NCBI GenBank assembly: GCA_024639085.1
Contig: JAHEJB010000011.1
Span: forward strand, 1 to 36,905
Reading direction: 5' to 3'
From: Rubricoccaceae bacterium
GTDB lineage: Bacteria > Bacteroidota > Rhodothermia > Rhodothermales > Rubricoccaceae
Length of the DNA: 36,905 bases
Each line of letters starts with the position of its first letter. Within the stretch, counting starts at the first letter, position 1. Below are positions 13,789 to 17,286 of the stretch, one piece after another. The position numbers and the translations under genes are program-made. The notes under the pieces are model-generated. The model worked only from the letters and a program-made list of their open reading frames with translations, searched no databases and was not told the DNA's origin.

Positions 13789-16700
13789 CTACTTCTGAAG
13801 CCATGTAAGAAGTTGTTGTTGGACATCACGATTTGAAAAGAATCCAAAATGCGAGATTCCTGCATCTGCCTCGTAGACAAGCCGATCCTCTATTGGGAAA
13901 CCGCCAGCGCCATTGGCCTCGTAAACGCCTTCGGTAGGAACGACGAGGTCATTCTGATCTCCAAAAATGGCCTTCGCCAAGCGACCAGAAGCCCACGACT
14001 TGAGCCCAGGGTCCTTGGCCGAATATTCCGCAGCAACGGCGAAATACCTCGTCCCCTCTGGAGCTTCAGAAGCGTTAATCCAATTCTGAAAGTCGCTTCC
14101 AGGCTTCATGGCTTGAAGGCCGTCAAGCCCTTTGATTGCGCCCACTGCGAGTTGCTTTACGACCGCGATCAGCGTATCCAAAACCTCCGTAACCACATTA
14201 TCCGGGATGAACGCGAGGAGGTTGGTGTATGTATCGACAAGCTTTCCCAAATGCTGGGCATCCGCCAGTGCGGTCCCACTATTTGGCGTGGCAACGAATG
14301 CCATGTTTCGAATGCGCAGCGAGCGTGAGCCAAGCGAAAACTCAGATTGCCGTTCGGCAATTGCGCGCCCCACGAGACCACCCCGTGAGTGACAGATGAA
14401 GTCCAGATCGAGATTGTCACCGGCGGGAAGGTTCTCCAGCAGCCATTTTGCGTTTTCTTTAGGATCATGAGCAAGCGTGGGATGATCAAATGCGAATACG
14501 CGGCCATCGTACTCTCGATGTAATTCGGCTAGTACATCCGGGTGCAGCTCCGAGAATGTCGAGTGGGAACGAAAGAACGGGCCGTGAAGGAACAGAAGCG
14601 ACCGACCATTCGAGAGCTGAGCAAGCGCATCCGCTCCGTCAGGTTGCGGGTCGAAGCTCTGAAAATTCCCCGGGGTAAATGATCGGACGTGATGAGGGCG
14701 ATTTTTGACTTCCCATCGCTTCACGAATGATTCGGTGATCATCCCCAGGAGTGGATCCATGAGAGGGAAAGCCAACACTTCCAGCACCTTCTTTCCGACA
14801 GTAGCTGCGATGCCACGAGTGGCCGGTTCTGAAGTTGGCGCTGGCTCGGCACGATCAATTGAATACGTCCTGGTTGGTTCTCCTCGAGTTTTTACTTCAT
14901 CATGATTCTGGAACTGCCAGGTCGCTATGCCGCTTTCATCCGTATAGAGGACGCATTGGGCGACATCGAGACCGGGGTCTTCAACAGAAAGCTCTATGGC
15001 CGGATCGACTCCGGAAAGACTCCGCGTTCGGACGGATTCTATTTCCACCGTTTGTTGACGCTGAATACCGGCCCTTTCTAGCGACTCCATCCAAACACCT
15101 TTGGCGGGCGAGGAGCCGCGCGTTACTCTTTCCTCGCTCGGAATAACACGGACAATTCCATTTACTCCCGGCGTTCTAAGTGTCACTCCGGAAAGCGATA
15201 GAGCCGTCCCACTTGCGTCCAGTGAAGCCGCATCGCCCTCGACTCGATGACTTCGTTTTCGATAGAGTGTGAATGCCCGGTTGATGGCCGCCCAGTCTTC
15301 GTCCGGCTTTGGCTTTTGCGGGCGACTTAGATCGCGCGTGCTACGGCCGGTCTGTGTGAGACTGAGCAACGCGCCGAGAGGAGAGTCGTCGACATATGCA
15401 GACCGAACGCCCTCTTGCACCAGCGACGAAAAGTCTGCCGGTTTGCTCGTAACAAACACTTTTAATGTCTCGACTCCTTTCACGGGTGTAGCCTCACCCG
15501 GCTCTTCGACAAACGGAAAAGTGTCGGGAAAACCAAGAACCAATTCATCGCCATCTCGAATCCCAATGTCGAGCGTGTTACCCGGCGCGAGCGCCTCGCT
15601 GGCTCCAGCAACGGGGTAAAGTTGCGCAATGCGATTGGAGAGTCCGAAGTCGAGGACGTACAGATAGACAGCCTCCGAGTGGTTATTGATAATCGATAGC
15701 CCTAGTTGTTCGCCCTCTGTAAATGAAACCTCTCCACTCTCAGAATCAGGTTCTGCCGATTCCCAAGAGCCACTCTTCGATTGTCGCTTCAGTTGCACTT
15801 CGACCGCGCGTTGTAGCGTACTAGCCGAATCAGGATTGTAAAGATTAAGTGTTCGATTGAATTTTGCGATCACCTCCAGGTTGTCGCATACTATTGAAGT
15901 TGCTTGGGGCTCGGTTGCCGCGCGTGGTGGCATTGCCAGTCGCCCGTCTCTCCCGACAGAAGCCCAGGTGTTAACTCTGAGCATTCCAAGTTGGGGAACA
16001 GGGTCTCCGGAGGTTACGCTCGCCCTTTCCGAGAGCAGATATATGCATATTTCAGCCTCGTCCACGGGCGCTGAGAGCAGAAGTGGCGATTCTTCGACTA
16101 GTGCTTCAAGCGGTTTAGTGTCTTCCGTTGAGTTCCCCTTAATCGCAATACGCAGCCTCATCTCCCCTATTGACCGGGCCTGCTCAACGGCTCTGGCGCC
16201 CTCAGAAATTGACCCTGGAATACTCTCCTTCAAAATCGATGCTGACGACGTCGTCGCTCCAACACGAGATATCACCACTCGGCCAATGGAGGAAGATTCG
16301 TCGTCCGTTTTTGCATCGGTGGGAAACACATTGAGTTCTGATCCCGACGTTAATCCGTGCGCTGCCCCTGCTCCCAGTTCAACAGCCTCCTCGGTTCGAC
16401 TAAGTACGGAAATAAATCGCATCGGCTGGATGTCTCTCACGCCAAACAGCTCGCGATCCAGCGACCCTTCAATTTGAACTGTCTGCTTTGACGAATTAGA
16501 ACGAACTGAGCCGCGCGTTGCGTCATAAACATCACGATAGGTTGTGCCGGTATTAGCTCTGTTAAGTTCCCGGCCGAGGAAGAAAGAGAGGGCGCCGTGC
16601 TTTTGATTGGACTCTGGGTCCCGGTACTCGTACGAGCACTCATCATCTTTGCATCCTGCCATCAATACATAGCGCTGGCCAAGTGGAAGCCATCCGCTTG

Positions 16701-17286
16701 GACCGGCGTCGGTGCCCGCGGAACGGGTGGTTGGTCCTGTTACGGGCGAAGGCGGAAGCTCTTCAACCGGCCTCGTGTCAGGCGCAACCGTTCGGGCTTT
16801 TTCACCGAAAGCGTCACGAGCCATCGTTCCGGAGTGGCAACAGTCGAAAATGAGCGTGACGTATGGTGTCTTGGCCGTAACGCGCTGAAGCCACGCATAA
16901 ATCTCGTCATCCACAATGTCGCGATTCTCACCCGGGGCGCGCGCGGAGTCGTAGGTAACTAGTGTTTCATCAAGGCCATCCGGTTCGTCTCCTTCGCGGT
17001 CGGTTATCTGTGAGCCGTGCCCCGAGTAATGCAGCACCACGATATCGTCATTCTCGACACGCTGCTCTAAAGACTGCATTGCCTTAAGAATTCCCTCTCG
17101 AGTCGCCATTTCGTCCGTCAGGATCTCAATATGCTCTTTCGAAAACCCAAATACCGTCTGCAAAGCCTGATTCATCAGCCGGACGTCATTCACGCAGCCA
17201 TCGAGCTGTTCAAACTTTGTGAGGTTGGGATACGAGTTGATCCCAATTAGCAAAGCTCTCTTTACGGACGTCGTTGTCTCAGGCAT
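13789..17286 (-). CDS. Metacaspase-like protease fused to DUF4384-like region and C-terminal alpha/beta hydrolase (lipase/esterase-like)
   Basis: RALLIGINSYPN, VVLHYSGHGSQ (His), TLIFDCCHSGTMAR (Cys); FTEGEQLGLSIINNHSEAVYLYVLDF (DUF4384-like); LLFLHGPFF, DFICHSRGGLVGRAIAE nucleophile elbow, DLVVPTEGVY, SHFGFF. Confidence 0.92.
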   Translation of the reverse strand: MPETTTSVKRALLIGINSYPNLTKFEQLDGCVNDVRLMNQALQTVFGFSKEHIEILTDEMATREGILKAMQSLEQRVENDDIVVLHYSGHGSQITDREGDEPDGLDETLVTYDSARAPGENRDIVDDEIYAWLQRVTAKTPYVTLIFDCCHSGTMARDAFGEKARTVAPDTRPVEELPPSPVTGPTTRSAGTDAGPSGWLPLGQRYVLMAGCKDDECSYEYRDPESNQKHGALSFFLGRELNRANTGTTYRDVYDATRGSVRSNSSKQTVQIEGSLDRELFGVRDIQPMRFISVLSRTEEAVELGAGAAHGLTSGSELNVFPTDAKTDDESSSIGRVVISRVGATTSSASILKESIPGSISEGARAVEQARSIGEMRLRIAIKGNSTEDTKPLEALVEESPLLLSAPVDEAEICIYLLSERASVTSGDPVPQLGMLRVNTWASVGRDGRLAMPPRAATEPQATSIVCDNLEVIAKFNRTLNLYNPDSASTLQRAVEVQLKRQSKSGSWESAEPDSESGEVSFTEGEQLGLSIINNHSEAVYLYVLDFGLSNRIAQLYPVAGASEALAPGNTLDIGIRDGDELVLGFPDTFPFVEEPGEATPVKGVETLKVFVTSKPADFSSLVQEGVRSAYVDDSPLGALLSLTQTGRSTRDLSRPQKPKPDEDWAAINRAFTLYRKRSHRVEGDAASLDASGTALSLSGVTLRTPGVNGIVRVIPSEERVTRGSSPAKGVWMESLERAGIQRQQTVEIESVRTRSLSGVDPAIELSVEDPGLDVAQCVLYTDESGIATWQFQNHDEVKTRGEPTRTYSIDRAEPAPTSEPATRGIAATVGKKVLEVLAFPLMDPLLGMITESFVKRWEVKNRPHHVRSFTPGNFQSFDPQPDGADALAQLSNGRSLLFLHGPFFRSHSTFSELHPDVLAELHREYDGRVFAFDHPTLAHDPKENAKWLLENLPAGDNLDLDFICHSRGGLVGRAIAERQSEFSLGSRSLRIRNMAFVATPNSGTALADAQHLGKLVDTYTNLLAFIPDNVVTEVLDTLIAVVKQLAVGAIKGLDGLQAMKPGSDFQNWINASEAPEGTRYFAVAAEYSAKDPGLKSWASGRLAKAIFGDQNDLVVPTEGVYEANGAGGFPIEDRLVYEADAGISHFGFFSNRDVQQQLLTWLQK

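What the first reader, a model, noticed from the sequence alone, without database searches (positions are those of the whole stretch)
13789..17286. Metacaspase fused to an alpha/beta hydrolase with an apparently complete catalytic set
Seen: N-terminal GHG/DCCHSG protease and C-terminal CHSRGG nucleophile elbow with downstream DLVVP Asp and SHFGFF His. A protease and a lipase/esterase in one chain suggests a protease-released or protease-gated hydrolase effector, e.g. membrane damage. The linker is about 700 aa with a DUF4384-like beta domain.
Basis: partly seen in the sequence, partly recalled or inferred. Interest (0 to 1): 0.72.

Follow-up and report, generated by a model that had tools for sequence, protein, structure and literature searches.

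The report
Bacterial caspase fused to a lipase
A bacterium of the Rhodothermales encodes one long protein with a caspase-like protease at the front and a lipase-like enzyme at the back, and conserved arginines in the floppy joints between them look like the places where a protease cuts the lipase loose, probably as part of a bacterial cell-death or defence system.

Summary
The ORF is on the MINUS strand (13789-17286, 1165 aa): a metacaspase-type C14 protease, about 550 residues of beta-rich middle, and a DUF7379 alpha/beta-hydrolase with triad S967/D1113/H1146. AlphaFold/Foldseek places the C-terminus among true bacterial lipases. The gene leads an operon: caspase-lipase, caspase-nSTAND1-TM-WD40, CHAT-TM. 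The fusion recurs in Rhodothermia, Gemmatimonadota, Solirubrobacter and a proteobacterium; a second, divergent fusion occurs elsewhere.

New point: the only residue outside the lipase core invariant in all 24 aligned relatives is an arginine (R824) in an AlphaFold-disordered junction just before the lipase. It persists where the lipase is fused to a caspase, fused to a CHAT protease, or encoded beside a CHAT gene. A prediction written down beforehand held for the Arg in 4/4 new proteins and for protease adjacency in 3/4. Other conserved linker Args (R651, R801) and a T-R-[SGD] excess also fit an Arg-specific protease.

Best reading: a protease-released lipase effector of a conflict system. Cleavage, lipid target and defence are inferred. 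Caspase/hydrolase pairing was already predicted (Kaur 2020) and caspase-activated nucleases shown (Canu 2025), so this is a new variant of a known kind.

The parts
13789..17286 (-). Whole gene (P0001, 1165 aa): metacaspase - middle region - DUF4384-like - second beta unit - alpha/beta-hydrolase (DUF7379)
16447..17262 (-). Peptidase_C14 (metacaspase-type) domain, residues 9-280; dyad H90/C150; residues C31, D34, S88, D148 at the positions of the TbMCA2 S1 pocket (Cys92, Asp95, Ser156, Asp211)
   Evidence: S1 pocket from PMC4357240; equivalence read off the motifs
16723..16725 (-). R188 (TTR-SA), candidate p20/p10 maturation site, next to AF2 low-confidence loop 189-193
15439..15723 (-). DUF4384-like beta domain, residues 522-616 (weak, below Pfam cut-off)
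15334..15336 (-). R651 (T-R-D) in disordered linker 629-661; invariant in 14 fused proteins, also in most unfused caspase-DUF4384 proteins
14842..15303 (-). Second beta-rich unit ('mid2', residues 662-815) that travels with the hydrolase, fused or not, in the main family
14884..14886 (-). R801 (T-R-G) in disordered loop; R-[GSD] here in nearly all relatives of the main family
14815..14817 (-). R824 (A-T-R-G-I), invariant junction Arg, the main candidate release site
13789..14799 (-). Alpha/beta-hydrolase (DUF7379), residues about 830-1165; S967, D1113, H1146
9654..13775 (-). Operon gene 2 (P0003, 1373 aa): caspase (H87/C139) - nSTAND1 - TM (761-780) - WD40
   Evidence: 13-bp gap to gene 1
7170..9557 (-). 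Operon gene 3 (P0002, 795 aa): CHAT protease (H236/C283) - TM (426-453) - C-terminal region
7123..7150 (.). 10-pair hairpin between gene 3 and the convergent gene, likely operon end (the number of terminator-like matches in the region is not above chance)
17428..18609 (+). Divergent upstream gene, GAF - class III nucleotide cyclase; same place in L017; a GAF-SpoIIE gene there in L018

Best explanation
This is the executioner gene of a three-gene conflict (cell-death or defence) module. Gene 2 (caspase-nSTAND1-TM-WD40) is probably the sensor/initiator and gene 3 (CHAT-TM) a second, membrane-anchored protease. Gene 1 holds a metacaspase and a lipase that is kept inactive or tethered by the beta-rich middle region. 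On activation an Arg-specific clan CD protease (the caspase in cis or trans, or the CHAT protein) matures the caspase near R188 and cuts the disordered linkers after conserved arginines (R651, R801 and above all R824). This frees a roughly 340-residue lipase (from G825) that attacks membrane lipids or other acyl esters and stops the cell. Shown by sequence: domains, catalytic residues, operon, conserved Arg sites in predicted disorder, recurrent link with caspase/CHAT. Inferred: that the sites are cut, that cutting activates, which protease cuts, the substrate, and the defence role.
For: Both catalytic sets are present, and the full fusion is conserved at 35-58% identity in Rhodothermia, Gemmatimonadota, Solirubrobacter and a proteobacterium. 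The hydrolase model (pTM 0.83, core pLDDT about 90) matches true lipases best: Proteus mirabilis lipase 6jd9 1e-8, Geobacillus L1/T1 lipases, LipK107; the PDB sequence profile also finds 'putative lipase' 7x2p at 5e-6. R824 is the only column outside the hydrolase core invariant in 24 relatives down to 20% identity, in a segment with pLDDT <50 in both models. In 14 fused proteins the only residues conserved at 85% or more in disordered linkers, away from the catalytic-Cys loop, are T650-R651, R801 and R824-G825. In linkers T-R-[GSD] outnumbers the reversed [GSD]-R-T 49 to 1; P0001 has 6 TR[SG] against 0.83 expected. Every one of the 24 has a caspase or CHAT in cis or in the adjacent gene; more distant DUF7379 proteins without the site (L155, L156, L158) have none nearby. 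A prediction noted beforehand held for the Arg in 4/4 new proteins and for CHAT adjacency in 3/4. Metacaspases cut after Arg/Lys (PMC9622860) and the S1 residues match.
Against: No cleavage, activity or toxicity data. L175 keeps the Arg but has no caspase or CHAT nearby. The TR[SG] excess is absent in L139 and L140. One full-length orthologue (L007) has lost the nucleophile Ser. R824 is followed by a predicted helix and nearly always by a small then an aliphatic residue, so a structural or docking role is possible. The alignments are shallow (24-27 rows), full-length pTM is only 0.45, the sequences are related, and gappy linkers make it easier to align arginines.
Confidence: 0.55

Rival explanations
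1. The junction Arg is structural or a docking point, not a cut site: the chain works uncut, with caspase and lipase held together as one signalling or scaffold enzyme, and activation is by conformational change.
For: R824 is followed by a predicted helix and in nearly all relatives by a small and then an aliphatic residue; L175 keeps it without a caspase or CHAT nearby.
Against: Both AF2 models leave the segment disordered; R651 and R801 are also conserved Args in disorder; R824 persists across fused, split, caspase-linked and CHAT-linked forms.
Confidence: 0.25
2. The protease is the effector and the hydrolase is a regulator, for example removing an acyl anchor from a partner (thioesterase or depalmitoylase) rather than damaging membranes.
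For: Weak Palm_thioest similarity (E 0.16 in P0001, 0.006 in L150); thioesterase domains appear lower in the full-length Foldseek list; bacterial gasdermin toxicity depends on palmitoylation in Runella (PMC9079055).
Against: True lipases dominate the structural matches of the isolated domain; unfused hydrolases beside CHAT genes look like protease-controlled effectors.
Confidence: 0.12
3. A development or stress programme of the host rather than defence against phages or plasmids; the divergent GAF-cyclase and Ser/Thr kinase neighbours point to regulation by signals.
For: Neighbouring GAF-cyclase and kinase-TPR genes; no known defence system recognised for the operon beyond generic caspase, CHAT and cyclase models.
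Against: Patchy distribution across phyla (about 5 of 245 Rhodothermia genomes carry the full fusion; 1 of 299 in the class of Solirubrobacter); nSTAND1 and caspases are typical of conflict systems (PMC7159879, PMC8195603).
Confidence: 0.2

Closest known systems
VMAP ternary conflict systems with caspase / alpha-beta-hydrolase pairing (Kaur et al. 2020, PMC7159879)
   Same: The authors note that whenever a caspase-superfamily domain is present, a neighbouring gene always encodes an alpha/beta-hydrolase and that the two probably operate together; proteolytic release of effectors is proposed.
   Different: There the pairing is between genes around MoxR-vWA-VMAP; here it is one chain with CHAT and caspase-nSTAND1-WD40 partners and no MoxR or vWA among the window proteins scanned. 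No cut site was proposed in the passages read. DUF7379 does occur with TCAD7 and CHAT in L021, so the hydrolases may be related.
EACC1 two-gene systems (constant caspase plus variable C-terminal effector; NCBIfam NF047832)
   Same: N-terminal caspase fused to a different C-terminal effector, with release by the caspase proposed.
   Different: P0001 scores 54.6 bits against a 140-bit cut-off, and no EACC1 gene precedes it.
Canu (caspase-nuclease) antiphage systems (PMC12799240)
   Same: A caspase activates a co-encoded pro-enzyme effector that carries disordered gating segments; experimentally supported.
   Different: The effector there is an MBL-fold nuclease in a separate gene with active-site insertions; here a lipase in the same chain.
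Bacterial gasdermin plus caspase-like protease (PMC9079055)
   Same: A clan CD protease frees a membrane-attacking effector at a defined loop site with P1' Gly.
   Different: Pore-former rather than enzyme; P1 is Leu247 in Runella; separate genes.
Bacterial family I lipases (Proteus mirabilis lipase, Geobacillus L1/T1)
   Same: Best fold matches of the C-terminal domain; Ser-Asp-His order.
   Different: Only about 14% identity, TM about 0.5; embedded in a protease-containing chain.

Membership tests
Metacaspase / orthocaspase (C14B) | C14 fold with His-Cys dyad | tested here: met
   Pfam C14 E 2.7e-28; phmmer Metacaspase-1 2e-21; Foldseek AtMC4 1e-13; H90/C150 invariant in 14 fused proteins
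Metacaspase / orthocaspase (C14B) | Acidic S1 pocket for P1 Arg/Lys | tested here: met
   C31, D34, S88 (Ala in most relatives) and D148 at TbMCA2 pocket positions, by motif only
Metacaspase / orthocaspase (C14B) | Cleavage after Arg/Lys, maturation cut in the p20/p10 linker | not testable with these tools
   Candidate site R188 only
DUF7379 (PF24096) alpha/beta-hydrolase | Pfam profile above gathering score | tested here: met
   179.5 bits against 33
Lipase-type alpha/beta-hydrolase | Fold and Ser-Asp-His order with nucleophile elbow | tested here: met
   Foldseek lipases 1e-8; S967 between strand 958-966 and helix 969-978. Triad distances were not measured (no coordinates available)
Lipase-type alpha/beta-hydrolase | Lipid ester hydrolysis | not testable with these tools
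   No activity data
EACC1 system | NF047832 above cut-off and EACC1 gene upstream | tested here: not met
   54.6 bits against 140; the upstream gene is a divergent GAF-cyclase
VMAP ternary system | MoxR, vWA and VMAP genes in the locus | tested here: not met
   None among the window proteins scanned; the contig is 36.9 kb, genes elsewhere not checked
Canu | MBL-fold pro-nuclease beside a MALT1-like caspase-Ig | tested here: not met
   No nuclease in the operon
Protease-activated effector (as a way of working) | Cleavage releases or activates the effector | not testable with these tools
   Conserved Arg sites and protease co-occurrence only

The most novel reading that the evidence does not exclude
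DUF7379 hydrolases form a general class of caspase- or CHAT-activated pro-lipases in bacteria: one conserved junction motif, R-[small]-[aliphatic], is the activation cut whether the protease is a fused caspase, a fused CHAT or a neighbouring CHAT gene; the window protein is the self-processing single-chain version, a bacterial lytic executioner parallel to gasdermin but enzymatic.
Probability: 0.42. Interest if true: 0.8.

Novelty: new variant of a known kind. Interest (0 to 1): 0.6.

Why it matters
Bacterial caspases are known to switch on pores and nucleases; a caspase that carries and frees its own lipase would add a third kind of executioner and a simple cis design. The conserved Arg gives a single-residue, directly testable prediction that applies to many proteins at once, and a handle on what DUF7379, a domain of unknown function, does.

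Tried and rejected
(1) TR-S motif just before the TM of the CHAT partner (P0002, PSRSTRSASR): not conserved in CHAT orthologues, treated as chance. (2) TR-G at residue 257 lies in a predicted helix of the caspase and R755 at a strand edge; not counted as cut sites. (3) T-R-[SG] as a universal motif: absent in L139 and L140, so only the Arg position is claimed. (4) A strict rule that the site always comes with a protease: L175 is an exception. (5) EACC1, VMAP and Canu membership: not met. (6) PADLOC PycC hit of the divergent cyclase: generic class III cyclase similarity, not taken as Pycsar. (7) Plasmid search gave only matches to the caspase part, none covering 80% of the query; 146 genomes of the phylum of Tolypothrix gave no DUF7379 at E<=1e-14 although Scytonema has a divergent one. 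(8) The literature library has no paper naming DUF7379. (10) Two failed calls for wrong frames or coordinates (42, 52).

Full report
What is there. The ORF is on the minus strand, 13789-17286, 1165 aa. Pfam gives Peptidase_C14 at 9-280 and DUF7379 at 897-1071, both highly significant, and a sub-threshold DUF4384 at 522-616. The dyad is H90/C150 and the hydrolase triad S967/D1113/H1146.

Operon. The gene is followed 13 bp later by a caspase-nSTAND1-TM-WD40 gene (P0003) and then by a CHAT-TM gene (P0002), all on the minus strand, with a strong hairpin after the last. A divergent GAF-cyclase gene lies upstream. The close relative L017/L026 has the same four genes. CHAT genes sit next to the fusion in L018, L019, L139, L140, L145 and L149; a TPR-S-caspase overlaps it in L030.

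Distribution. The full fusion occurs in four further Rhodothermia genomes, Solirubrobacter phytolaccae, several Gemmatimonadota and a proteobacterium. Among 245 genomes of the class, 5 have the full fusion. The caspase-DUF4384 unit also exists alone, often near CHAT, and in Gemmatimonadota and the phylum of Solirubrobacter the 'second beta unit plus hydrolase' exists alone. In a caspase tree the two fusion groups lie on opposite sides of a well-supported branch (100/100): a main group, within which split forms are mixed in (L144, L038), and a distant group (L152 Rhodothermia, L154 Calditrichota, L153/L044 Scytonema). This suggests more than one fusion or repeated splitting. The distant group also has the caspase-nSTAND1-WD40 partner in L154. 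Many forks of that tree are open, so it is not used for finer claims.

The hydrolase. An AF2 model of residues 803-1165 has pTM 0.83. Foldseek's best PDB matches are true lipases, and a sequence profile finds PDB 'putative lipase' entries. In 24 aligned proteins the Asp and His are invariant and the Ser is missing only in L007, where the oxyanion Gly is also lost, so that copy is probably a dead enzyme.

The junction arginines. Among residues invariant in the 24-row alignment only one, R824, lies outside the hydrolase core. It sits in a segment below pLDDT 50 in both models. In the 14 fused proteins the residues conserved at 85% or more inside low-confidence segments are the catalytic-Cys loop, T650-R651, R801 and R824-G825. 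The order test controls for composition: in linkers T-R-[GSD] occurs 49 times and [GSD]-R-T once. The linker windows were drawn from pLDDT but their edges were adjusted by hand and the proteins are related, so the p-values should not be read literally. In P0001 four of six TR[SG] arginines are in or within three residues of disorder (hypergeometric p 0.007).

Which proteins carry it. All 24 have a C14 caspase or CHAT fused or adjacent: fused caspase; fused CHAT (L021, L150, L157); or a CHAT gene next door (L143, L147 2 bp away, L144). L132, not among the 24, also has the Arg and an adjacent CHAT ORF. Distant DUF7379 proteins L155, L156, L158 lack the motif and have no caspase or CHAT in the held flanks, though they are also more divergent. 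I wrote down a prediction for five new proteins before reading them. One was cut off by a contig end (L172; its contig does carry caspase and CHAT genes). In the other four the Arg was present in 4/4 (HRGL, TRGP, QRGL, KRGL; TRGP departs from the aliphatic position) and a CHAT gene adjacent in 3/4. The exception, L175, has no such protease among its neighbours. So the Arg is a robust feature; the protease link is strong but not absolute.

Mechanism. Metacaspases cut after Arg/Lys (PMC9622860, abstract), and the TbMCA2 S1-pocket residues (PMC4357240) have counterparts here. The simplest reading is maturation in the p20/p10 linker (R188) and release of the lipase after R824. Because R824 persists where only a caspase is seen (L028, L020) and where only a CHAT is seen (L143, L147, L021), either protease family might use it; in the window both are present. 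That cutting happens, that it activates, and that the lipase attacks membranes are all inference.

Comparison. Kaur et al. 2020 (PMC7159879) already noted caspase/alpha-beta-hydrolase pairing in VMAP systems and proposed proteolytic release of effectors; Canu systems (PMC12799240) support caspase activation of a pro-nuclease; gasdermins (PMC9079055) show protease release of a membrane effector. This finding shares that way of working, as far as it can be inferred, but is not a member of those systems by the tests made. What is new here is the single-chain caspase-lipase, its CHAT/nSTAND1 operon, and the junction-Arg rule. Hence 'new variant of a known kind'.

Noticed in passing
L007/L020 (G049:C270), L020:3025-6723: Full-length orthologue with catalytic Ser replaced by Gly (CHGRGG) and oxyanion HG replaced by HN, and no CHAT gene found in the flanks: a natural dead-hydrolase version.
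   Followed up: partly
window 17428-18609 (+): Divergent GAF-nucleotide cyclase next to the operon, conserved in L017; replaced by GAF-SpoIIE in L018 at the same place, so the GAF gene may be a linked sensor.
   Followed up: partly
L157:1487-7093: 1868-aa protein with two hydrolase-like regions (DUF7379 and LCAT-like), a CHAT domain and TPR-S in one chain.
   Followed up: no
L035:7986-11780: Methanoperedenaceae archaeon: caspase-DUF4384 unit fused to about 625 residues with no Pfam match, possibly another effector on the same caspase unit.
   Followed up: no
window 36018-36713 (-): HEPN_AbiU2-like protein (30.2 bits, cut-off 26.8), possible further defence gene near the contig end.
   Followed up: no
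window 3982-6711 (+): Ser/Thr kinase with TPR repeats; a kinase-TPR gene also lies directly upstream of the fusion in L029 and a kinase-like ORF (not scanned) in L139.
   Followed up: partly
window 2278-3921 (-): 547-aa ORF without Pfam match between the carboxyltransferase gene and the kinase.
   Followed up: no
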